A model generated the notes under the pieces. It did not search any database. It saw only the letters and a list, made by a program, of their open reading frames with translations, and was not told the DNA's origin. A DNA stretch of 64,000 nt from Plicaturopsis crispa FD-325 SS-3 (lineage: Eukaryota; Basidiomycota; Agaricomycetes; Amylocorticiales; Amylocorticiaceae): contig KN832561.1 in NCBI GenBank assembly GCA_000827205.1, positions 1,638,084 through 1,702,083 of the forward strand. Reading direction: 5' to 3'. The position numbers were made by a program, and so were the translations under genes. Each line of letters starts with the position of its first letter. Position 1 is the stretch's first letter. Of this stretch, positions 166 through 23,373 are shown piece after piece.

Positions 166-313
166 GTTATGAGCCCCGCGCTCCTCTGATCTACACGCTG
201 CTTTCCTCGTTGAGTTTCAACACTTTTTCTCTGTTCTTTTGCGCTCAAAACTCCGGATTTCCCCCTCCCTTTCCTGCACATTCATTCCCATCACCATCCT
301 CCACCTTCCTATC

Positions 314-1465
314 ATGTCTCCCACCGCCGCTCTCCAGCTCCTCGCCACCTTTGACGTCGCCAACAAGTTCAATGGCTCGAACTGGTCCGCTTTCAAGCGC
401 GAGTTCGTCATGACGTTCGGTGCCAACCCCGCGATGTGGGCCGTCATGCAGGGCAACACCAGGCGTCCCTCTTCCCCCTCAGAGGGTGATGCTGCCTCCA
501 AGTGGGATGGCCTTGACCGTGACGCCTGCCTGGTGCTTTATAAGACCATGGCTAGCGCCGCTGTCCAGTCCACCCATTTCAAGGCTAACTGGACGTCAGC
601 GCAGATCTGGAAGAGCCTCACGTCGGAGTACGAGAAGGACGTTCGCTCTGCTCGCTTCGACCTGAAGAAGCAGTTCCACAATCCCGTTCACGATCCTTCC
701 CAGCCCATCGCCACCTACATCGCCCGTATCGAGGACGCTGCTGACCAGCTTAGCGTCATCGGCCACACTCCTTCCTCCACCGACATCACCGACTCCATCA
801 TCATGCATCTCGACCCATCCTGGCACGTCATCCACACCATGCTCGTCACTCGCCCCTCCAATCCATCCATCAGCGAGCTCAAGGGCATTCTCGTCGAGTT
901 CGAGAGTCAGCAGAGGTCTCGTGGTCTCGCCCCTCCCGACGCTTCGTCCCAGGCGCTCTATGCGAAGGGGAAGAAGAAGTCAAAGGCCAGTGGGAGACGT
1001 CACCATGACAACTCCGATGAGTCCGGCGCGTCCGACTCGTCCGATATGTCCTTGTGGCTGAACCCCAAGGACCCGGAGAAGGACTGCCATCGTTGTGGTC
1101 GTCCTGGCCATGTGGCCAAGTTCTGCATGCGCCCGATGCCATCCCAGATACGCGACAAAATCATGCGACGTGCTCGTCATCGTGCTCATCACGCCGCCAC
1201 TGGCTCAGACTACTATGGCTCTGACAGTGACGACGGCATTGCTGGTGGTGCCTTCGCCGGTGCTGCATCACATCTTACGCCGACCCAGATCCTCAACCGT
1301 GGTCTGGCGCTCATCCCCGACTCAGAGAACGCCGACGACATCTTCGCTGGTGCTGCCCTCCGAGGCATGGATGGCTCAGGCTCAGACGGCACAGATGTTG
1401 ATAGCGATTCGGACGACAGTCTTCCAGCTCATGTCTCACGGGCTCCGATTCGGATTCAGGCGTAG
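314..1465 (+). CDS. Copia-type Gag polyprotein (UBN2 family)
   Basis: An uninterrupted 383-residue frame from the ATG at 314. The N-terminal two thirds has the fold signature of copia-type Gag (UBN2/retrotran_gag), with 'FNGSNWSAFKREF' near the start and 'WTSAQIWKSL' and 'YIARIEDAADQLS' in the body. A CCHC zinc knuckle, 'CHRCGRPGHVAKFC', lies at about residues 259-272. Gag packages element RNA in virus-like particles in this family. The C-terminal 100 residues are acidic and Ser/Asp-rich. The first in-frame ATG was chosen because the frame upstream of it is low-quality leader. No pol follows. Confidence 0.75.
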   Translation: MSPTAALQLLATFDVANKFNGSNWSAFKREFVMTFGANPAMWAVMQGNTRRPSSPSEGDAASKWDGLDRDACLVLYKTMASAAVQSTHFKANWTSAQIWKSLTSEYEKDVRSARFDLKKQFHNPVHDPSQPIATYIARIEDAADQLSVIGHTPSSTDITDSIIMHLDPSWHVIHTMLVTRPSNPSISELKGILVEFESQQRSRGLAPPDASSQALYAKGKKKSKASGRRHHDNSDESGASDSSDMSLWLNPKDPEKDCHRCGRPGHVAKFCMRPMPSQIRDKIMRRARHRAHHAATGSDYYGSDSDDGIAGGAFAGAASHLTPTQILNRGLALIPDSENADDIFAGAALRGMDGSGSDGTDVDSDSDDSLPAHVSRAPIRIQA

Positions 1466-1790: not shown

Positions 1791-3176
<1,386 letters not shown>

Positions 3177-4398
3177 TGTGGATAATCAGAAATTGAACTG
3201 TCGATGTAGTTGCAGAAAGAGAGAAAGAGAACGGCGAGCACAAGAGCGACTGCGAGCGTCGTTAGCAAGAGACGTTCAAGTCACCGCGCCTCTACCGCCT
3301 GGCGTAACGGTTCCGTGACCTTACGTAATGCCTTACTGCGGCGTTTCTCAGTTCTGCTGTAACGAATTCCCTCTCTTTGCTCCTGACGCTCGCTGTCTGG
3401 TCGCCGTCTTTGGGCGCTTTCGTTCTTCTGCTTCTGCTTCAGCGCTTGTCCTGTACGTTTGGAGCAACACCGGACTGGATCCTCGAATTTGCTGGAATCA
3501 CACACTTCTTGCTTCCTATGGGCAATTGCGTGCAGTGTATTACGGTCGCGTGTCGTTCTGTCCGGGTCCCCGCTGCTGTGCACCTTGCAAAAAAAAACGA
3601 GACTACACGTTAACGCTGCTAAACTCGCTGGGAATTTGAAAGTCCTTTTCCAACAACTTCCCGGGGCGCTTGGAAGCCTTGTTCGCGCGTCAGGCTACGT
3701 GTTTCTCTGCCTGGGATGGCCGCACAGTCCCACTCCTAGGACACGCCTCATGCGCGGGACGTTTGTGACCTACAAAGAGCTATCTTCGTCTCCATAGCGG
3801 TCCCCAGAGATGAAGCCAGCCGCGGACGCGCCCAGGACGCGCTGCAATCCCATGGTACGGAAACTGGTGTACATCATGCTTGTCCGCTGTTTTTGGGTTC
3901 CTAGTGAAGCCTGCTATCTGGTCTTCCCCGGAGGCCCTGGCCACACAGCCTGTGCCTACGCCTCTTACACGCGTGAAATGGCAGGCGCCCATTCAATACC
4001 CTTACTTGGAGATCGACATGCGACCACTTCTGATACATCGATGTCCCAGGCCAAGTATCGGCTAGATCTCGTGAGTGCGGCTCATTCTGCTTCTAAAGTA
4101 CTGTCTGCCAATGGGCGGAATATCTGGTAAGCAGCCGCCGAAAGATAGACTGAGCGATTAGAGGATATGTGCCATACCCCAAGCCTTGCAGACGCTTTGA
4201 CCCCGTAATAGCCATAGCTGAACGATAACATGCACCCTTTTTTTGCAATGTATTCGCACTGTGCCATGCCTTATATCCCACATAGCTCGTCCGAAGACGT
4301 TAAACTTATAGCAAGAAACGCGGTTTGTAAAATGTAAGTAGCTGATAATGAAATAGATAATCAATAGATAGCTAAGATACACGTCGGGGGACTTTCAG
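3177..4398. other. ATG8 upstream region, no gene seen
   Basis: About 1.2 kb between the ATG8 start codon and the stop codon of the next minus-strand gene. It must hold the ATG8 promoter and the 3' UTR of the ubiquitin-like/RING gene. Open frames on both strands are short and unrecognisable, and I found no repeats or RNA genes. Confidence 0.6.
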
Positions 4399-7096
4399 TC
4401 ATGCACGGCCGCACAGTCCAGACACGCCGTTAGACTTGAGTCGAAACGACGATACCTTGTGCTCCTTACTACTCCGCTCCAGCTGCACAATCCGCTCATC
4501 CAGAGTCGCCCCGTCGGCTTCCACGCCATCCTCATCCTCGCACCCCGGGGTGGCCATTGGAGCAGCAAACCGCTTCCTACGCACGACTGCGCGCTTGCAC
4601 GACGCGCATTTGCTGCCGGCACGCCCGCAGTGGTCGCACAGTTCGTGCCCACAGGGCTGCAGACGAAACGTCGCCATCTCGTCCCGACAGTGGCCGCACT
4701 TCGCTTGCGTGCCCGCCGACGACCCCGCCGCCGTGCGTTCCCGGTCGAGTTGTGCGATAGAGGCGACACCAGAGAGGTACGACGTGTCGTTATCCGCGGC
4801 GGGGATTTTCTCGTCGTAGAGCGTGTACCAGGGAAGGCCGAGGTCCGCATACGTGCTAAAATCGATTGGGGAGGGTGGACTCGGCAGGCCTGTCACGGCG
4901 GTGAAGTGCGCCGCGTTGATCACGGAAATGTGGAGGCGCGTCGGATTCACTTGGTCGTAGGCGGTGATAGGCAGCGGGTCGCGGTTGATTTTCTGCGAGA
5001 TGCGCCCACCTGCGGCAAAGCCGGCCATGATGTCGAGCTCATCTGGCCCATAGCCGCCGCCACGAAGGCTCATCGCCAAGTACACCACATCTCCGGTCTC
5101 TATACCGTAATCTAACCCGTATTCAGTTTGAAATCCATTCGTGCAGAAACCTAAAAAAGCCTGACCTGAGCATACGTGTCCATCTGCAAGCTGCTTGCCA
5201 CAGAATATCAGTCGTTGGTCGTGCGGAGGTATGCCTTCCTTGTCTTGTATCTTTGCCTTTATATTGGCAATGCTATCCGAGCTCGCGGCATGGATGGCTA
5301 TCGTCTTCCCAGTCAGTGTTTGTACAGCTATGGAAGGGTAAGAACGCGATCGCAATGTAGCACGGTCATGCTCACCAATGATGAGGCCTTTCGAGTCGAG
5401 GGATTCGAACATGATGTTGGGGGAGGCAGTATAGGCTGATTCGCCAGCTCTCAGGATTTGATCTCTCTCGTCTCTAAACCAGGCTTCTGTCAATAAACGA
5501 CAGGGCATAGTGGAATGTTTGAGCTCACTTGCGCAGGTCGACCATGTGCATCACAGTCCCATTCCGGAGACCAATCTGCCGCGGTGTCTGGTAGATATCA
5601 TATGCTTTGCTGTCCATGGTGAAGGAGACCGTCGTCGGATATCGCTTAAACACGTCGATCTGAATGCCACCGACGTCCTGAACGGTGTTTGAATCAGCTA
5701 CGAAATGCCGAATAGAATGACAAAACTGGTGTACCTCTCGCCCTGTAAGTTGTCCTTCGACGGTATACCCTTTACCAAGAGGCATCGCCACAAATTCTGT
5801 TCGCAATTATTAAGGGCCAGAAATGTACCGAAATGATGTAGGTACTTACGCCGGACGACTCCCGGGGCAGTCGAAATGCCATCCTACAAACGTCTCTGAG
5901 TTTTCTACGAAGTAGAAAGGCACAATAGATCTTACAAGCCACCTTAACAGTCATGTCAGCACCATGCAGACAGCGGGAGGGTAGGAGAGATAATCACAAT
6001 TGTCCATTTTTATCGTTTATGGCAAGGTAGTCTTGCTGCTTTCCCTTAGAAGGCTCATTCTGCGGTAGGCCCGTCAGAGCATTGAGACCGCCCACGGAGA
6101 TTTTAACCGCGCACGACGCGTCCTCGGGCTTGAACGACATCCACATAGCTTCGCGCTGGTACATGCTCTGCAATGAACGTATGAGCAATTCAACATGATC
6201 ACTGTGATGGAGAGCGTACGATAAAGGCACCTCCTTGTGCTAACACTGTCCGAGGCAGTTTGTGAGCAGAGTCGGCCACGTTACTGTGAGGACCACCCAG
6301 TGAGCCACTTTGTGAATATGTCCACCGTTGGTTGGGGACTTACAATAATTTGAACGGTCCTAGATCAGGAGGTAGAGCATGCGTTTTATCGTTATCCGGG
6401 ACGCGGACAGTTCTGCGTAGATAGGGTTCAATGCATAAGGATTTGCCTTTGGCAATGAAAATCAAGCAGAAGTACCTATGAAACCTCACTTTCACTCCGC
6501 CGACCTCCACCCTACCGTGGATGATTTTGGCCTCGCTGACATACTTAGCAGGCTGCGAGACTGGCTTAACAGCTGGGAAGAGCCGATCCTTGTCGGCAGT
6601 TATCGCTGGCAGATACACTTGGTGATAAAAATGTAGAAGGGGTTGATCACTGTGTGCCGTGTTTTAGGTACGTGTAAAAAAGAGGTCCTATCCGAGGTGC
6701 AAACGCACGCGTTTATCTGACCACCGACGCCTGGGATGTATTTGGATGGCGCGCTCGTTACCTTGATCTTGTGTTTAAGGACAGATCTCGAGAGGAGAAC
6801 TTTAGGCGCCGCGTAGCCTGTGCGCACAAATAGAAGTACTCGTCAGTTGCACTGACCGTCTAGTCGCGAGATAACGCGAACGGCTCGTACGTACCTTTCT
6901 CGACAAGTCGACGCGCAACCTCGTCAAACTGGACTGGCACAGGGACGTCGTCGAGTGCAGTTTGTATCACTGCACCGCGCGAACGATCCGATATTGCGAC
7001 TGTTACGCTTGTTGTACGCGTCTTCAAGATCTGCGGGGTCTCGTCGAGCCATTCAGACTCGGTCCTCATCTTCTTTTTTTCGCGTGTCTCTACCAT
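4399..7096 (-). CDS. Ubiquitin-like domain and RING-finger protein, uncharacterised family
   Basis: A multi-exon gene starting at the ATG at 7096. The last three coding exons are well resolved at 5486-5376, 5327-5166 and 5111-4399; those upstream are approximate. Spliced order: a long N-terminal region with '[15 protein letters not shown]', '[18 protein letters not shown]', '[11 protein letters not shown]', then '[18 protein letters not shown]' and 'GGIQIDVF'. A ubiquitin-like domain follows ('[20 protein letters not shown]', '[19 protein letters not shown]', ending 'AMSLRGGG'), and then a C-terminal RING whose Cys/His run reads CGHC...[10 protein letters not shown]...CASC. The architecture suggests an E3 ligase-like role, but the N-terminal family has no function I can name. 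The RING Cys spacing looks complete. Confidence 0.8.
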
Positions 7097-12586: not shown

Positions 12587-14707
12587 ATGTCCGACGCCAG
12601 AAAATCGTCTTATGTCTGCGATACCATCCCCGCACCTCGCTTGGCCGCCGCAGGATCCTCGAGCGTCAATCAGGCATCGACCGCCGAGTCGACGAGCCAT
12701 TTCGAGCCATCGAGAGAGGACGTAGCGCTGGCACACGAACCGGAGCATCATCGCGCAGTCGTCGAGCCTGTTGTGCCCTCTCCTGCGCCCCCGAGGAAGC
12801 TATGTGTCCGCCATCAGCGTATGGCCGACGAGGGCACGAATTTGAAGCTACAGCAGGTGAGTAGCGCTGTCACGGTCCCCTTAGATATAAGCTACTAATC
12901 GGTTCTGTCGCAGTCTTTGGATGCTCTACCACTCGAAGAGAGAGAGGCGGTGAATGCGGTCTGGTCCAACTTTTCCTCGTCCTCGCACCCTCGGAGGGCT
13001 CTCATCCTCCAGGGCCTCCTCACCATGTGCTGCTTTTCCCAGCTATCGCTCCTCACGGAGCAGCTTGCGCACCTGATCCGAATAGACCCCTTCAGCGTCC
13101 TCCCAGGCGAAGTTTCGCTGAAAATCCTCGGCCATCTCGACGCAACATCGCTATGTCGAGCGGCACAGGTCAACAAACAGTGGCGGACCCTTGCTGACGA
13201 CGATATTCTATGGCGCGGGATATGTGAACAGCACATCGGGCAGAAATGCCTAAAGTGTGGTTGGGGACTGCCGGTTCTCGAGCGTAGGCGGACGCGCAAG
13301 GCGAATTCGGCTTCACCGCATGCGCCGCCCTCACCCCTCCCTTCACTCAAGAGGGAGCTTGATCAGGAGTCCCTTGTCCCATCCGAGCGTCCGCTGAAGC
13401 GACAACGATCGGAGCAGGGCGAGTCGGCGCATACCGACAGCGACTCGCCGTCAGCGTCGCAGTCTATTCCTCCATCTCCCTCAGAATCACTCCTTGCCCC
13501 TAATCCCCCTCATACTTCTCCTGAACTGTATACTCGACCGTGGAAAGACGTCTACAGCGAGCGGCTTACTGTCGAACGCAACTGGCGCCGTGGTCGATGT
13601 AGCGTGCGCACCCTGAAAGGCCACACCGACGGGGTCATGTGCCTGCAGTTCAGTGAGACTCTGTCGCACCCCTCATTCCCTATCCTCATCACCGGCTCCT
13701 ATGATCGCACCGCCCGCGTATGGAACCTCGAGACCGGCCAGGAGGTGCTCGCGCTCAAGGGGCACACCCGTGCCGTGCGCGCGCTCCAGTTCGACGAGGC
13801 GAAGCTCATCACGGGCAGCATGGACCACACGATCCGCGTGTGGAACTGGCGCACGGGGCGCTGCATCCGCACGCTCGAGGGGCACACCGAGGGCGTCGTC
13901 GCGCTCAACTTCGACTCGAACGTGCTCGCGAGCGGGAGCGTCGACGCCACCGTCAAGGTGTGGAACTTCCGCACGGGCGAGGCGTTCACCCTGCGCGGGC
14001 ACCAGGACTGGGTCAACTCCGTGCAGCTCTGGGACTCCGACCCCGCGGTCACGCGCACCGCGTCCTCGTCCACGCCCATGTTCGACGCCGTGCCGTCCGG
14101 CAATGCGTCGCCCTCTGCTAACTCGGCACCGCACATCGACCCGGGCAAGATGCTGTTCTCGGCTTCAGACGACGGCACAATCAAGCTGTGGGACCTCACC
14201 CTGCGGGCGTGTGTGCGCCAGTTCACTGGCCACGTCGGGCAGGTGCAGACTATGAGGCTTCTGGCTGTGGACGAGGGTTGTGGCGAGCCCCCGGTCGAGG
14301 GGCAGCAGCAAGACGCGGAGGCAGCGGTTGCGAAGCGGCCCACGCCTGTACTCATATCCGGCAGCTTGGACAACACGATCAAGCTTTGGGACATCGCGAC
14401 TGGAAAGACCATCCGGACGCTCTTTGGCCACATTGAGGGCGTCTGGGGCGTCGCCAGCGACAAACTGCGTTTGGTTAGCGGTAGCCACGACAGGACTATC
14501 AAGGTAAATGCCGCGTCTTTCTTCTAGGTTTTCCATGTCGCTTACATACTTTGACAGGTCTGGTCTCGCGATGAAGGCCGATGTACGGCGACGCTCGTGG
14601 GCCACCGCGGCGCCGTGACCTGCCTTGCGCTCGGGGAGGACAAAATCGTATCGGGAAGCGACGATGGGGACATCAGGGTGTGGAGTTTTGCAGGCGACGG
14701 GAGTTAG
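12587..14707 (+). CDS. F-box/WD40 protein, Met30/SconB type
   Basis: Three exons: 12587-12856, 12914-14503 and 14558-14707; 2010 nt, 669 residues. After a disordered start comes 'LPLEEREAVNAVWSNFS', then an F-box ('LPGEVSLKILGHLDATSL', 'AAQVNKQWRTLADDDILW') followed by 'KCLKCGWGLPVLERRR'. Seven WD40 repeats then form the substrate-binding propeller, each ending in a WN/WD/WS motif ('SYDRTARVWNLETG', 'GSMDHTIRVWNWRTG', 'SASDDGTIKLWDL'). This is the order in the SCF adaptor Met30/SconB, which controls sulfur metabolism and cell cycle by targeting transcription factors for ubiquitination. Acidic inserts interrupt the WD4 and WD5 blades. Orthology to Met30 rather than Cdc4 is an inference from the F-box flank. 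Confidence 0.88.
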
Positions 14708-15007: not shown

Positions 15008-18000
15008 TCAGGGTTTGAAGCCTATCGCACGAAGTTCGTCGACACGCAGCTCATGTCGAAGTCGCTCCTGAGCTTGAAGCTGAACGCTGCGCGCCTCTAG
15101 AGCATCCTCTAGCTTGGAGTGCATAGGAACACTCCGAAGCTGGTTCTCCAGATACGCAAGGTAGCTTCGGGTGTGCTCCCGCTCGAAGGAGGGCACGGTG
15201 TACTTGTTCATGTCTTGGAGCTTCGTGAAAAACTTTGAACAGCGGCGGAAATCGATGAGGTAGCGGCTGTCGACTTCGATGGCTGCGTTGGTTTTGTAGA
15301 TTGACCGCAATTCCTCCAGATGAACATCTAAGCGGATTGACCTTACTGAAGTCCTTATTAAACACAATGATTGAGACGCACCTAGCCATGGTATACATTC
15401 ATTTTTTGCCTCGCGCAAAACTGAACGGTAAACCCGATGGTCGTCCTTGTCGTCCAAAATAGTGGATAGTTTCTGCCATAAACGGTCCATTTGTTTTGTT
15501 CGGGTGACTTTCTCTCGTGTTATGCGGAGACGTGAGATGGTCAACGAATTCAGAGCCTTCATGATAGTCGCCCAGGACGCGAAGTTTTTCAGCAATCGAC
15601 ATTCCTAGGTAGAGAGACCGTCAGATAAAGAAGAAAGGTACGAGTAAACCCTTACTTCAGCCGCATTGATGAAGAACTTCAAAGTGCTGGCGCGGACTTC
15701 GACATCCTCTGAACGAAGGATGGACTTTTTGATCCAGTTCATGATCGTGCGGTTCTTGACCAGTGCCGCATCTATGGGCGTCTGTCCGCCGATATTCTTG
15801 AAGTACGCCAAGTAATCGTCCTGGATGATGCGAGAATACAAGTCGCCTTCCGTGATAGAGAGTGCTTGTGCCAGATCTATAGGAGCCTCAGGCTTCACAA
15901 CCGCACTGGAGCTGAAACTGGACGAAACGGGGGACATGAGTCCTGCTTTCTGGCATGCGGCAATCTTTCGTCCGTAAGTTAGAAGGGACACTACACGCAG
16001 AACTTGACGAGGACCTACCCGGTCGATCACCTTCGAGGAAACCTCTGAAGCCAACTCCTTCATGTAACCGGAGCTTTGTACCGACGCGCAGAAGTCTTGG
16101 ATGCCTGATAACACATTAATGTTGATCTGTGCGCTAGCCAGCCACTGCTTGATTACTGTCAACACGCTTAAGATTGAAGAAAGTCAGCGGGGAGGAAGAG
16201 GTTTAGAAAGGATCGATCAGACATGCCTGTATCGCAAGATCGACCTGTCTTTCGCAGTCATCTTCGGATCCTTCTCTACCTCGTCGTAACGACGGACAAG
16301 TGTAGCGAAGAGGTTTTCTGACGTCGTGAAAGCTAGATAAGTGGCTATGAATATTCTGCGGTACTCGGTATCTTTCCTGAAATCTGTCCCGAATGTGTCA
16401 ACACTTTACGAATAAGTCGATTAAAGAAGACGCACCTTTTGAGTCTGTGATCAAGCGATCGACCAGACCCTCTAGTGTTCCGGAATCGACGGACCCATCG
16501 CGTGCATGTTGTATGAGGGCAGCTGGGTCGTTTACCGCCATCTCAAGCGAGTTTGATTTTGAGGAGATTGACTGCCCCGAAGAGCCAGCATTTGACTCTG
16601 TCGACGGGGTGTGAGGTAGCAACGAAGGCGAGATACGTGCTGGAAGAGAGCTCGACAGTCCCCCGTTATGTCCATTCAGATGGTCGTCAAAAGATGGCTG
16701 TCGAGCGGATTCAGAGCGTGGAATTTTGATGGGTTGGCTGGGCCCGCGGTTGTGTGCGGACTGAAAGATGGTAGGCCTTTCCCCTAAGCTTGCTGTATTC
16801 CGTCGGAAAGCGGTGGATTTGCTACTGTAGCCAAGTAGGTCACCCAGGATCCCCCAGTCCGCTTCGCCGGCGTCAGTGTCCGTTGTTGGCTCTGGTGTTG
16901 GCTCTGGAGATAACAGTAATGACTCAGACGGCGGTGACTGCGAGATCTGGTTGAGCCGGGAAGTCAAGATGCTGCCCTTGGAGTTCTCTGTCATCTGGGA
17001 GGTCGACGAATAGGAGCGCATATGCAAGTCCGGGGTAGTGCGGGACGTGTTCGGGCCGGAGGATGTAGACGGACGCGATGAAGACGTCTGTCCCTTTCTC
17101 AAAGTCTGTGTACTAGCCTCTGAGGCACGGCGAGCAGCCGACGATCCAACAGCAACTGGTGCGGGCGGTCTCGAGGAAGTGGGAGACGGCCCGTTATCAA
17201 GGCTTGTGCGCGTTGGCAGTGGGCCTAGTAAAGATAGACATTGATTTATATTTTTCGTGTGCGTGCTTAAAGGGAAGACAAACCTGAGCCAGGGGGTAAT
17301 CGTAGCTGTCGGATTGCCAGTCGAATGTCAGTCATGGAGGGCCGTTCCTTGGGGTTCTTGTTCCAGCAATGCATCATGAGGTCCCACAATCCATCGCTGA
17401 GCCCTTTGACATTCGGACGATCCGGTAGTCGTCCGCGAACGAGCTCGAACGCCACGGTGATGTCCCTATTGATATTTGGGAACGGCGCTTGGCCCGTCAT
17501 CACCTCGAGGCAAAGCATGCCAAAGCTCCAGACATCCGTGTAGGTCGAAACGGGCGTCGTGGTCTCCCCTGAGAGGTCGATCAGCTCGGGCGCAAGCCAC
17601 CGATAAGCAGTGGCGCCAATGGCTGCGCTCTGTGTCCCTGGGGGCGCCTAAATTGATCTGCGTAAGAATAGTCCAGACGCAAGGTGACTGGCGTTTTGAG
17701 ACACACCGCTTCCAGTACTTTCGACAAGCCGAAATCGGATAGGCATGCGCGGCCGCTCTCTGAAATTAGAACGTTGGCCTGAATGGTTGGTCAGTCATGG
17801 GCACGCAAGTTATGTGTGTGGAAGTTGGCTTGCCCCGCGAAGATCTCCGTGCACGATGTTGGGATGCACATGAGTATGCAAGTATTCCATGCCTTTGAGA
17901 AAACGAATCGTTGTCAAAAGCGTACCTATCATGGGACACAGCACATACCTATAGCGACCTCGCTGAGTATCTTGAGTCTATCTGCGTCAGGGTTTTGTTG

Positions 18001-19577
18001 TACGTAGGTGATGGCGTTCCCCTTTCCCATCCATTTGCTGACCTGATGTCCGTTAGCATCGTCCGCAGACAAGTAGGACGAAACGATGACTCACCGAGTA
18101 TATCTGCTTTCCAAAGTAGGCGATTCCGTATAGGCGCGTTACGTTTGGATGCTGCAAACGCCTCCAGATCTCAACTTCTTTCAAAAAGCGCTATGCAGCG
18201 GCCAAATTGTCAGCGATTAACCTCGCCAGTCGGGAGGATGTGAACTGACGTGTTGAGCGACGGGGTTATTGACAAATGCGCGCGAGAACCGCAGTGCAAC
18301 CTGACAGCGCGCGCCTATCCGTCAGATCGTTGATAGGAACGGCGAAAAGATATACAGACCTTCTCCTCGTCTAGCCAAAGGCCTGTCGGGGGGTTTCAGC
18401 ACGCATTTGGATTAGACAATTTATTTGAATAGAGGCATACCAGCGTAAATGTCATTGAAAGCACCACATGCAACAGGTTCTTCCTCTGTCTTGACGACTT
18501 GGCCCGTCACTGTTAGTTCGTAGTCAGTCATTGTGCACGGCTGAGGAATAGAAAGCTGTTACGGTCTATCATCGGAGGGAGCTGATTCGTAGCCTGATGA
18601 AGCTCCCACAACCCTTGCCGCAGTGCATGTGGTTGCTGTTGCTCTTGTAAGTCCACAGAAGACGACCCTGCAGTAGGTTTACGGAGAAGCTCCTACGACG
18701 CGACGTTAGACACGGACCCCTTTCATTTTGGAACTGTGAATACCTCCTGGATGCTTTGCATGAAGCCTTCAACCTCGGGAGTCCCCATCTGCTTGATGAT
18801 CTTCAGCTCGTCCTGATTTTTCAATATGTTCTGGAGGAGTTCTGTGTATATTGTGAGACATTGCCAGGACGCGAGAATGAAGATACCGTACGAAGCAGCT
18901 CGGCCTGATCGCGCTCTTGGATGCTTACAAGGTCCTGTTGGCCTCGAACCTGTTCCATGCTCACAGACACCTGATATTTCCGAGTCAGCGCTGCGACCAT
19001 GGGCATGATTAAGATGGGAAAGCACATTGAACTGCATGGCACATGCGTCGATAGCACGGTAGGATGCGTCGATGCCTTCTTTGATCTCGCTTTGCTTGAC
19101 AAAACTCTTGACGCGACTCAAAGTTGACCAATTCTGCATTCTTCTATGTATGGTGCGTATCGTCCTACCATCAATGGTCAGTTATCGACGCCTTCGTAAA
19201 TGATTCTCAGCAGGACGCACGACTCTACTTCATCGGCAGCTCTCAGAGCCTCGGTACTTCCCATTCCAGTACTGCTTTCGCGCAAAGCGACCAGTAATGA
19301 TGCACAGCGGTTGGACAAGTCGGCACATTGACGCTATTCCGGATCTCGTGCATAAGTGAAAGCAAGCGGCGCGAACATATCGCTTGCACTCACTCGATAC
19401 ACCTTGACATTTTCGATGTTGGCAGCCATTCCGCTGGCTATACACGTGTGTTCAATTGTGAATTAGCGCTCATCATGTCGAAGCGAATGAGCTGTGCTTA
19501 CCTATGTCGATCCCGATGTCTAGTCCAGGAATGCCTGCTATGCCAGCGGCAGCAGAGATCACATCGTTGATACTCAT
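15008..19577 (-). CDS. MLKL-like N-terminus, TKL kinase and RasGEF fusion protein
   Basis: One large minus-strand gene, from ATG at 19577 to TGA at 15010-15008, with about 20 exons. Exons 1-4 (19577-19502, 19437-19394, 19333-19221, 19143-19026) encode a helical N-terminus ('IENVKVYRRQCADLSNRCAS', 'MQNWSTLSRVKSFVKQSEIK') like the MLKL-type adaptor bundle. A kinase domain (about 18510-17290) follows: 'CGAFNDIYAG', 'KEVEIWRRLQHPNVTRLYGI', 'HGDLRGANVLI', 'SDFGLSK', 'YRWLAPELI'. A GT-AG intron near 17283-17226 links 'LRLPPGSG' in frame to 'PLPTRTSLDNGPSP', so kinase and RasGEF parts are one gene. A disordered linker precedes RasGEF_N ('DTEYRRIFIATYLAFTT') and the RasGEF catalytic domain ('FASWATIMKALNSLTISRL', 'IPWLGVHLEELRSIYKT'). 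The beta-3 Lys is replaced by Arg ('KVALRF'). Likely a Ras activator under kinase-domain control. Confidence 0.85.
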
Positions 19578-20326: not shown

Positions 20327-20430
20327 GGCAAGATGGCGGAGTGGTCAATCGCGTTGCCCTTAAGTAATCACTACGTACTCTTGGATATGCAATCTCTTCG
20401 GAGGCGTGGGTTCGAACCCCACTCTTGCCA
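20327..20430 (+). tRNA. tRNA-Leu, anticodon probably UAA, with intron
   Basis: Acceptor stem GGCAAGA (20327-20333) pairs with TCTTGCC (20423-20429), followed by A73 at 20430 as in leucine tRNAs. The D arm is GCG...CGC, the T arm GTGGG-TTCGAAC-CCCAC (20406-20422), and a long variable arm CTC-TTCG-GAG (20394-20403) marks a class II tRNA. Anticodon TAA sits at 20361-20363 after CT. A 22-nt intron, about 20365-20386, follows position 37. The anticodon stem TTGCC/TGCAA leaves one C-T mismatch at 31-39. Reading AAG instead would still give leucine but puts a pyrimidine at 37. Confidence 0.88.
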
Positions 20431-21143: not shown

Positions 21144-22766
21144 TCACCCGGTATCGTCCTCAGAGTCGAAGTCCGAGTGCTGCACCATCCGTTAGCTGGT
21201 CACTCAGAATCCAACTAAAGTGTATGTACTTGCCTCATGTGGAGCAGGCTCTGGGAGATCCACATTAAATCCATCACGCTTGAGCGCCCGTAGGGGCTCT
21301 AAATCAGGCTTCGGGTAGAAATCTGGTTCCGTCACCCGCCATTCCACATAAGTAAGAGGTACGGGAGCGGGCTCCGTGGGCAAGTGAGCTCGAGGAAGGG
21401 ACTCATCCCGACTTGGAGTCCTCCACCGCGAGCGAATCATCTTGGCCAAGCCCTCGATATTGATAACAGTATTGATGAGTGTGAGGACTGTCAATGCTGG
21501 AAGGCGGCCGTTGTTGGGAGTATCCTCTGAGCGTTCCAAAGAAGAGACGACACGGTCACTGAATGTGAAGCGACCGGCAATGTGGAGCTCGCGGAGGGAC
21601 GGGAGTTCTGATAGACACTGGATGAATTCGTCTTCCGGAATGTCGATGTAGTGTATGGCCAATAGATCCAGACTGCAACGACTGCGGTGCAGGAAGGTCA
21701 TGAAGGAACTTGCGCGATCAGCGGCTAGCGTGTTCGACGTAAGCCTGAGTTCTCGCAACACAGGCGCCGTTGCTCTTTCAAAGAGAAGCATATCGAGAGT
21801 GTCCGAGTCGTGGATTTCATAAGTGACAAGCAGACATTGCAGGTGTGGAAGTAGCACTGAAGGTGCAATTGAATCCTCCGCCGGACTGGTTCGCACTTCA
21901 TGCAAATTGCACTCCACCAGATTCGGAGCCTGGGACAAGAAATCAACGCATCTATGCTGCGATTGGTGCCACAATGTCAAGTGTGTTAGTTGGCCCCATG
22001 GGACGTCGATCATCTTGTCGAGGACGCTGTTCGTGTAGGAGAACTTCCGCAACTGGGTCGACGTCGTAAGGTCCCACCACGGGCCGAAATCCAATCCCAG
22101 GTTGAGGACCAGTGAGCGTAGGGAGGGAAAACCTTCGTCGATGGCGTTGTCGAATTCCTCGTGAATTTCGGATATGGAGAAATTGAGGTGTTCCCAGCGG
22201 GTGGAATAGAGTTCGAGTATATAGGCGATCTTCGCCGGGGAGTACGCTGCAGGAGGATGGTAGAGCAACGACAAGGGAAGGTTTCCAGAACGCAGAAGCC
22301 AGACTTGAGCTGCACGAAACCATGAACGACGACCTGTGGGATACACTGACGTCCATAGTTGTGGAGTCGACAATGCGACCGCCCACCATGTGTGGCATAC
22401 GCTCCCTAGCTTTAAGACCACAGCGCGGATATCTGGGATGTCAACCGGGAGGCAGTCGATGAATATATGGGATAGGAGTTCGTTCGGAAACCGGCGAAGC
22501 GGTGAGACGAAGCTACGGTTCCCGTCGAGGCGTTCCCGGAGAGCATCTTGTTTGCGTGTTAATTGGGCTAAGACGTCTTGGAGCCGAGCTATCTCTTCAT
22601 CGACCACGGATAGATGCGTCTCCACTTCACGAATGTCGTGTCGGATGACGGGGACATCTACTGCTGATGGGGGGTCGTTGTTATGGAAGAGATTGGGAAA
22701 CGGGTGGTCTGGTAGCGGTGGTGGGTCGTGCACAAGAGGTGTGCCACAGTTTTTGCACGCCCACAT
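21144..22766 (-). CDS. F-box protein of the large Agaricomycete family
   Basis: Exon 1 is 22766-21234 and exon 2 is 21179-21144; together 522 residues. The N-terminus holds a Cys pair in 'CKNCGTPLV' and a coiled-coil stretch ('VETHLSVVDEEIARLQDVLA'). It is followed by an F-box, 'LRRFPNELLSHIFIDCLP' through 'SVCHTWWAVALSTPQLWTSV'. The rest resembles a degenerate leucine-rich-repeat solenoid ('LRELRLTSNTLA', 'SLRELHIAGRFTF'), the substrate side of an SCF ligase. The intron (21233-21180) begins GCAAGT instead of GT and contains a perfect CTAAC branch site. The last exon encodes an acidic tail, 'HSDFDSEDDTG'. The substrate is unknown. Confidence 0.85.
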
Positions 22767-23373
22767 GTCTGAAAAAAGTATGTTACGCGTAAGGAAACAT
22801 CCACAAGGATCTCAAGAGATTCACGACACTCACTCGATCCGCGACAAGAGAAAACGAGATTTTACGGTACGCGATCGGTGTTCCTACATCTATGTCAGGA
22901 TCTATATAGCAGGGAATTTAACAGGAAAAATTTACCGGGACTGGTCTCTTACAGTCTGCGATGGTGTAAGGACGAGTTCAAGCCGTCGACGGAGAAAAGT
23001 GGACGAATTACGGTCCTCGGACAAGCCTCGCGATTCGCGAGCGTCACCACGTGGGCATGATTGAGTAGCCGAGCAGTATCAGGCTTATCTCTGAGTGGCG
23101 TCGACGGTCGACCGACTCGACAGGCGTAAGCTGAGCGTATTGTCCTTCACTGACATGATGCATATAAGCCAGTCAGTCCTTGTATTATGTCCCTGCGACA
23201 GGACGGTCCAAAGCTGCTGATAGTACCCATGGACGAAATCAAATCAATTGTTCTCCGCTCGCGTCAAAGGGAGTGGCTCAGGTCAAAGCAAGGTCAGCGA
23301 AGGATATAAAACGCGTCGCTCACTCCAAGATATTTTCCCTCGCACCTATCTCCCCATATCTCCGTCTACACTA
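22767..23373. promoter_or_regulatory. Divergent upstream region, F-box and SAP genes
   Basis: 607 bp between two start codons facing away from each other. A purine- and pyrimidine-mixed, moderately GC-rich stretch; no motif could be assigned with confidence. Confidence 0.45.

What the first reader, a model, noticed from the sequence alone, without database searches (positions are those of the whole stretch)
15008..19577. One gene joining an MLKL-like bundle, a kinase domain and a full RasGEF module
Seen: splicing connects an MLKL-like helical N-terminus, a tyrosine-kinase-like domain, RasGEF_N and RasGEF in a single minus-strand gene; the junction between kinase and linker (about 17283-17226) keeps frame. 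Known: MLKL-type bundles act in regulated cell death, and RasGEFs switch on Ras upstream of cAMP and MAPK. Inference: the protein may couple a death- or stress-type sensor to Ras activation. Kinase-RasGEF fusions exist in Dictyostelium (GefX), but a form that also has an MLKL-like N-terminus is little described.
Basis: partly seen in the sequence, partly recalled or inferred. Interest (0 to 1): 0.72.

Follow-up and report, generated by a model that had tools for sequence, protein, structure and literature searches.

The report
MLKL-like pseudokinase fused to RasGEF
A fungal gene appears to join a cell-death-type helical bundle, a probably inactive kinase and a Ras-activating enzyme in one protein, which would be an unusual way to switch on Ras if the predicted join is real.

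Summary
A minus-strand gene, 19577-15008, reads as 21 exons and 1148 aa in one frame. Pfam finds a kinase domain, RasGEF_N and RasGEF above cut-off; MLKL_N falls just below it (25.2 bits against 27 for the N-terminus alone). A profile of this N-terminus and three paralogues hits MLKL in 7 of 8 PDB matches at E<=10, best 4.4e-4, so the MLKL relationship is well supported.

New: the kinase has Arg259 in place of the beta-3 lysine and a degraded glycine loop, so it is probably a pseudokinase, as in MLKL. Three other loci of this genome pair the same bundle and kinase without a RasGEF nearby; of 9 RasGEF loci only this one lies beside a detected kinase.

Weak point: the kinase-linker join. Intron 15 has good splice sites but the weakest branch site and lowest G+C of 20 introns; a kinase-only isoform, or two genes, remains possible.

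Best reading: a pseudokinase-gated, membrane-recruited RasGEF; a new variant of known kinds. No transcript or other fungal genome could be consulted.

The parts
15008..19577 (-). whole predicted gene, 21 exons, 1148 aa, stop codon included
   Evidence: spliced model with one open frame; splice sites picked by eye, then scored leave-one-out
19050..19577 (-). exons 1-4, aa 1-116: N-terminal helix and MLKL_N / basidiomycete MLKL-like bundle (Pfam match aa 23-116 = 19511-19050)
   Evidence: MLKL_N 1.3e-5, 25.2 bits, cut-off 27; profile of 4 family members hits MLKL chains in PDB, 7 of 8 hits at E<=10, best 4.4e-4
18563..19049 (-). aa 117-224: brace-like stretch and link to the kinase
   Evidence: the profile alignment to mouse MLKL 4btf runs to residue 186 of that chain, past the bundle
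17321..18480 (-). kinase-like domain, aa 235-488; HGD (D352) and DFG (D370) kept, beta-3 lysine replaced by R259 (codon 18291-18289), glycine loop ACGAFN
   Evidence: PK_Tyr_Ser-Thr 1.3e-44; coordinates; motifs
17225..17283 (-). intron 15, the kinase-to-linker junction; retention gives a stop at 17269-17267 after PPGSGLSSL
   Evidence: donor 6.1 and acceptor 4.5 bits leave-one-out; weakest branch-site match and lowest G+C, 0.34, of 20 introns; retention translation
16491..17224 (-). Ser/Thr/Pro-rich, probably disordered linker, aa 501-745, all but the first base in exon 16
   Evidence: 40% S+T+P, 16% order-promoting residues; no Pfam match at E<=1
16133..16490 (-). RasGEF_N, aa 746-827
   Evidence: 1.8e-11, 44.6 bits, cut-off 28.3
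15239..15877 (-). RasGEF catalytic domain, aa 895-1072; hairpin motif PWLDVHLEEL departs from the usual form
   Evidence: 1.2e-30, 107.2 bits, cut-off 23.1; PDB matches Cdc25 2.4e-14 and SOS1 1.3e-11

Best explanation
The gene encodes one signalling protein: a basidiomycete MLKL-like four-helix bundle with a brace, a kinase-like domain that is probably a pseudokinase, a long disordered linker, and a Cdc25-type RasGEF module. Most likely mechanism: at rest, the pseudokinase and brace hold the bundle closed. A binding partner or phosphorylation of the pseudokinase releases it. The bundle then oligomerises at the plasma membrane, as MLKL and HeLo bundles do, and the tethered RasGEF is brought to membrane-anchored Ras, which it loads with GTP. 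In this reading the MLKL-type translocation switch works mainly as a recruiting device for Ras activation rather than as a pore. Shown here: the homologies, the motif changes, the paralogue family. Inferred: use of intron 15 in the cell, autoinhibition, membrane recruitment, GEF activity.
For: One frame through 21 exons. Domain matches. The MLKL profile result is specific and reaches the brace; 3 of 4 family members hit MLKL_N on their own at E<=10, best 7.9e-6. Bundle and kinase occur together at four loci counting this one; the closest is 42% (bundle) and 48% (kinase) identical, with exons of 44, 139 and 94 nt of the same length. R259 replaces a lysine kept in the three paralogues; 3 of the 4 family members depart from the catalytic Lys/Asp/Asp set at some position. 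The stretch of exon 16 before its first Met, which must be coding if the join is real, scores as coding in the expected frame (0.03 against -0.25 and -0.30 in the other two forward frames; 125 of 5000 base shuffles as good) and has 62% G+C. The most hydrophobic 19-residue window of the protein lies in the N-terminal helix, 1.42. RasGEF regulation by membrane recruitment is established for SOS and Cdc25 (recalled); PMC1273635, passages, says the flanking domains mediate membrane localisation and activation.
Against: No transcript. Intron 15 has the weakest branch-site match and lowest G+C of 20 introns and holds AATATA and TATAAA. One reverse-strand frame of the exon 16 stretch scores nearly as well (0.006). 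The MLKL_N match is under the Pfam cut-off, and lower still in the full-length scan, 20.7 bits; the single N-terminus finds no MLKL chain in PDB, its six hits at E<=10 being unrelated. The profile's other members were found with, and spliced by alignment to, this protein. The hydrophobic window is below the usual transmembrane threshold (recalled, about 1.6), and the N-terminal 32 residues carry no basic residue. The RasGEF hairpin has Asp and His where Gly and Tyr are usual, so exchange activity is not certain. D352 and D370 are kept, so weak kinase activity cannot be excluded.
Confidence: 0.5

Rival explanations
1. Two adjacent genes on one strand: an MLKL_N-kinase gene ending in what I call intron 15 (stop 17269-17267) and a RasGEF gene starting at Met569 (17021) or Met578.
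For: The closest paralogue, L042, stops 11 residues after its kinase and has no RasGEF nearby; retention of intron 15 gives a stop 5 residues after the exon end; AT-rich stretch with polyA-like hexamers; weak branch site.
Against: Only 245 nt would separate the stop from the first Met; the part of exon 16 before Met569 is open in frame, 62% G+C and coding-like; donor and acceptor score well and the length, 59 nt, is typical of this gene.
Confidence: 0.22
2. One gene with two products: splicing of intron 15 gives the RasGEF form, retention or intronic polyadenylation gives an MLKL-like kinase-only form resembling the paralogues. The intron would be the choice point between a death-type and a Ras-type output.
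For: Same features as above, plus the match in layout between the short form and L042.
Against: Purely from sequence; 16 of the other 19 introns also give an early stop on retention, so a stop on retention is not special; polyA-like hexamers also occur in 2 of the other 19 introns.
Confidence: 0.15
3. The bundle and pseudokinase act as a cell-death executioner of allorecognition or defence type, and the RasGEF is only an auxiliary signalling tail.
For: HeLo/HELL and MLKL bundles are described as death-inducing in fungi, animals and plants (PMC12881547, PMC10951266, passages).
Against: Basidiomycete MLKL-like bundles have an extra N-terminal helix shared with Goodbye-like domains, for which the passage seen asks for experiments before a death-inducing role is assumed (PMC9815663); the domain with the clearest enzyme homology here is the RasGEF.
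Confidence: 0.13

Closest known systems
MLKL (animal necroptosis executioner)
   Same: N-terminal bundle homologous by profile, brace region aligned, pseudokinase-like domain behind it
   Different: RasGEF_N and RasGEF added behind a disordered linker; HGD and DFG kept while the beta-3 lysine is lost; killing not shown
Basidiomycete MLKL-like (BaMLKL) and HeLo/HELL domains of fungal NLRs and kinase proteins (PMC9815663, PMC12881547, passages)
   Same: same kind of bundle with an N-terminal extension; some HELL domains sit in proteins with kinase or pseudokinase domains
   Different: no NLR part; RasGEF module at the C-terminus
Plant MLKL-type protein Pm13 (PMC10951266, passages)
   Same: MLKL_NTD, brace and kinase in one chain
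   Different: Pm13 kinase keeps all key residues and there is no RasGEF
Dictyostelium kinase-RasGEF proteins (a LISK and a ROCO, PMC1420674; GbpC, PMC1273635; passages)
   Same: kinase of the TKL group and RasGEF in one protein
   Different: no MLKL-like bundle mentioned in the passages seen; GbpC has LRR, DEP and cGMP-binding domains
Canonical fungal RasGEFs, loci L046 and L047 of this genome (Cdc25-type label recalled)
   Same: RasGEF_N and RasGEF; about 34% and 32% identity in rough spliced alignments whose C-terminal tails are noise
   Different: SH3-like N-termini by eye and no kinase match nearby

Membership tests
MLKL / HeLo-type four-helix bundle | sequence profile match to the MLKL N-terminal domain | tested here: met
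   25.2 bits, E 1.3e-5, below Pfam cut-off 27; the four-member profile finds MLKL in 7 of 8 PDB hits at E<=10, best 4.4e-4
MLKL / HeLo-type four-helix bundle | four-helix fold | not testable with these tools
   structure prediction accepts only letter-for-letter translations of the window, and the bundle is spread over several exons; not submitted
MLKL | pseudokinase domain behind a brace | tested here: inconclusive
   R259 for the beta-3 Lys and degraded glycine loop; D352 and D370 kept; brace aligned
MLKL | membrane permeabilisation and cell death | not testable with these tools
   needs expression
Protein kinase fold, tyrosine-kinase-like | better match to PK_Tyr_Ser-Thr than to Pkinase | tested here: met
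   1.3e-44 against 2.6e-37; best solved relatives are tyrosine kinases, EGFR, a Src-Abl ancestor, Lyn. The group label TKL is inferred, no classification was run
active protein kinase | beta-3 lysine, catalytic-loop aspartate, DFG aspartate | tested here: not met
   VALR, HGD, DFG: 2 of 3
RasGEF (Cdc25 homology) | RasGEF_N plus RasGEF over cut-off | tested here: met
   44.6 and 107.2 bits against 28.3 and 23.1; Cdc25 and SOS structures matched
RasGEF (Cdc25 homology) | intact helical-hairpin motif, about P-[FY]-x-G-x-[YF]-L-x-[DN]-L (motif recalled) | tested here: inconclusive
   PWLDVHLEEL here; of four other loci of this genome that could be read, L047 and L048 keep the Gly, L046 and L050 lack it; L049 was not readable there
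fungal NLR with HeLo/BaMLKL effector | NACHT or NB-ARC domain | tested here: not met
   none in the Pfam scan at E<=1

The most novel reading that the evidence does not exclude
An MLKL-type membrane-translocation switch, gated by a pseudokinase, has been wired directly to Ras activation, and intron 15 decides between a short MLKL-like product and the long RasGEF product, so that one gene chooses between a death-type and a growth/stress-signalling output.
Probability: 0.1. Interest if true: 0.8.

Novelty: new variant of a known kind. Interest (0 to 1): 0.5.

Why it matters
If the join is real, an executioner-type bundle and pseudokinase have been turned into the regulatory half of a Ras activator. 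That would link the fungal cell-death/allorecognition protein families to Ras-cAMP/MAPK signalling in one molecule and offer a direct test of whether basidiomycete MLKL-like bundles recruit to membranes rather than kill.

Tried and rejected
Searching the genome with the Pfam MLKL_N model found nothing, probably because introns cut the domain and the match is weak; searching with the protein did. The single N-terminus against PDB gave only unrelated hits at E<=10. The locus L045 (C5:363531) was examined and rejected as noise. RasGEF alignments to L051-L053 look like noise and were not used, although these loci match the Pfam RasGEF model. Viral contigs, searched with the kinase domain: 3 pattern matches, none confirmed. 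A claim that the RasGEF is dead was considered and dropped, since two of four other readable RasGEFs of this genome also lack the hairpin Gly. A claim that K-to-R is unique was dropped: L032, another kinase locus, also reads VAVR; several N-lobe alignments are unreliable and were not counted. C9:1206374 and C9:1305011 give only a bundle-like stretch without a convincing kinase. The NCBIfam scan of the first 501 residues gave only sub-cut-off kinase matches.

'MLKL' with 'RasGEF' gave 10 papers; I saw only the listing, and no title or abstract start concerned such a protein. (RasGEF with kinase and basidiomycete terms) gave none. One search gave 19 papers, 12 listed. The word RasGEF is absent from the held main texts of PMC9815663, PMC12881547 and PMC8778642, and GEF from that of PMC2838846. 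PMC11503967 (passages) reports two RasGEF genes as regulated in Tulasnella, without an architecture. PMC10197012 was seen as passages. None of this shows that the architecture is absent from protein databases; I recall, without a call, that kinase-RasGEF proteins are annotated in Agaricomycetes.

Full report
What is there. The minus strand from 19577 to 15008 holds a gene of 21 exons and 1148 aa. I picked the splice sites by eye from the sequence to keep frame and homology, so the open frame and the canonical ends (18 GT-AG, 2 GC-AG) are partly by construction. Not chosen for were the uniform intron sizes (all 20 are 51-64 nt) and the exact CTRAY branch sites found in 13 of 20 introns. The start codon at 19577 is the only ATG of its open frame between the upstream stop and itself.

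Domains. Pfam gives PK_Tyr_Ser-Thr (235-488, 1.3e-44), RasGEF (895-1072, 1.2e-30), RasGEF_N (746-827, 1.8e-11) and MLKL_N (23-116, 1.3e-5 and 25.2 bits with the N-terminus alone; 3.2e-4 and 20.7 bits full length; cut-off 27). The stretch 501-745 has no match, 40% Ser+Thr+Pro and only 16% order-promoting residues, and is probably disordered.

Is the bundle MLKL-like? A single-sequence PDB search found nothing relevant. With a profile of four related N-termini from this genome (alignment A1), 7 of 8 PDB sequences at E<=10 were MLKL, the best being a 469-residue MLKL chain (4btf, mouse by recall) at 4.4e-4, aligned to its residue 186, that is through the brace. The three other members were found with this protein and spliced by alignment to it, so they are not independent of the gene model, but MLKL played no part in choosing them. 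Three of the four members match MLKL_N on their own at E<=10, best 7.9e-6. This fits the basidiomycete MLKL-like class described in PMC9815663 (passages), which has an additional N-terminal helix; here the most hydrophobic window of the protein lies in the N-terminal 31 residues.

A family in the genome. Genome searches with the N-terminus and with the kinase showed three further loci with both parts in order: L042 on C6, L043 on C21, L044 on C1. Spliced-alignment identities over bundle plus kinase are 225/479, 171/475 and 167/483. Exon lengths 44, 139 and 94 nt are shared between the window gene and L042. L042 stops 11 residues after its kinase. The paralogue models are approximate: in L042 the activation-loop splice is doubtful, and the last exons of L043 and L044 are uncertain.

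RasGEF loci. The genome has 14 RasGEF exon matches, which I group into 9 loci. Reading their positions against the 74 kinase matches, only the window locus has both; the nearest other pair I find in the two lists is about 56 kb apart (C11). The three paralogue loci have no RasGEF match nearby; the closest is about 93 kb away (C1). So the combination is single in this genome, within the sensitivity of exon-by-exon searches that score only the best candidates.

Kinase state. The window protein reads VALR, HGD, DFG; L042 reads VALK, HGA, DFY; L044 VAIK, HGE, DFG; L043 VALK, HGD, DFG. Thus 3 of 4 family members depart from the catalytic Lys/Asp/Asp set. The window protein also has ACGAFN in place of GxGxxG. 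Lys-to-Arg at this place is the classic kinase-dead change (recalled). L032, another kinase locus, also reads VAVR, so this change is not confined to the family.

RasGEF state. The module matches yeast Cdc25 (2.4e-14) and SOS1 (1.3e-11) structures; the best locus of the genome in a rough spliced alignment is L046 (127/376, tail included). The hairpin motif reads PWLDVHLEEL, with Asp and His where Gly and Tyr are usual. L047 and L048 keep the Gly; L046 (PFIPMFLTNI) and L050 (PALEVHIDRV) do not. I do not conclude that exchange is lost.

The join. Retention of intron 15 gives a stop after PPGSGLSSL. Its donor and acceptor score well (6.1 and 4.5 bits), but its branch-site match is the weakest of 20, its G+C is 0.34 against a mean of 0.47, and it holds AATATA and TATAAA; hexamers of the six-member set tested occur in 2 of the other 19 introns. 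An early stop on retention is not special: 16 of the other 19 introns give one. For the join: exon 16 is open over 789 nt; the part before its first Met is 62% G+C and coding-like in the expected frame, with 125 of 5000 base shuffles as good, though one reverse frame scores nearly as high. If there were two genes, only 245 nt would lie between the stop and Met569. I put the existence of a spliced long product at roughly 0.78, the two-product case included.

Mechanism. MLKL is activated by phosphorylation of its pseudokinase domain, which unleashes the bundle to oligomerise at the cell periphery (PMC12881547, passages). RasGEFs act where their flanking domains place them (PMC1273635, passages). 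Putting the two together gives the best reading: a pseudokinase-gated bundle that brings a RasGEF to membrane-bound Ras. Every functional step is inference.

Novelty. MLKL_NTD-kinase proteins are known in plants (PMC10951266, passages) and HELL-kinase/pseudokinase proteins in fungi (PMC12881547, passages). Kinase-RasGEF proteins are known in Dictyostelium (PMC1420674, passages). I found no paper on the three-part combination; searches returned nothing, and of 49 and 50 I saw listings, with passages of some of the papers listed in 50. The library lacks most subscription papers. Kosti et al. (PMC2838846, passages) report many TKL kinases in Laccaria; the term GEF does not occur in the held text. 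I call this a new variant of a known kind, not a new kind.

Noticed in passing
window 20327-20429, + strand: Reads by eye like an intron-containing tRNA-Leu (GGCAAGATGGCGGAGTGGTC ... GGTTCGAACCCCACTCTTGCCA). ARAGORN, with its bacterial settings, returned no tRNA for the window.
   Followed up: partly
window 12899-14527, + strand: Open frame with F-box and WD40 repeats, convergent with the finding's gene (by eye).
   Followed up: no
window 21204-22811, - strand: Open frame with an F-box-like start (FPNELLSHIFIDCLP), upstream neighbour on the same strand (by eye).
   Followed up: no
window 4399-5550, - strand: Open frame with a ubiquitin-like stretch followed by Cys/His pairs that look like a RING-type motif (by eye).
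   Followed up: no
window 173-1465, + strand: Open frame with a zinc knuckle (CHRCGRPGHVAKFC), like a Copia-type gag of a retrotransposon (by eye).
   Followed up: no
L042 (C6:373000-382999), 2526-4706: Closest paralogue has HGA and DFY in place of HRD and DFG and a doubtful splice in the activation loop: a strongly degraded pseudokinase or a decaying copy.
   Followed up: partly
L054 (C9:1206374) and L055 (C9:1305011): Two further bundle-like stretches related to L043's N-terminus (E 1.7e-7 and 0.009), apparently without a kinase.
   Followed up: partly
L038 (C7:142325) and L032 (C10:856338): Other kinase loci with altered catalytic motifs, HGN and VAVR; altered catalytic residues may be common in this fungus's kinases of this type.
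   Followed up: no
window introns 18 and 20 (16018-15965, 15381-15328): Both are a multiple of three long and give no early stop when retained (intron 18: none within the next exon; intron 20: the normal stop is reached), so in-frame retention in the RasGEF part is possible.
   Followed up: no
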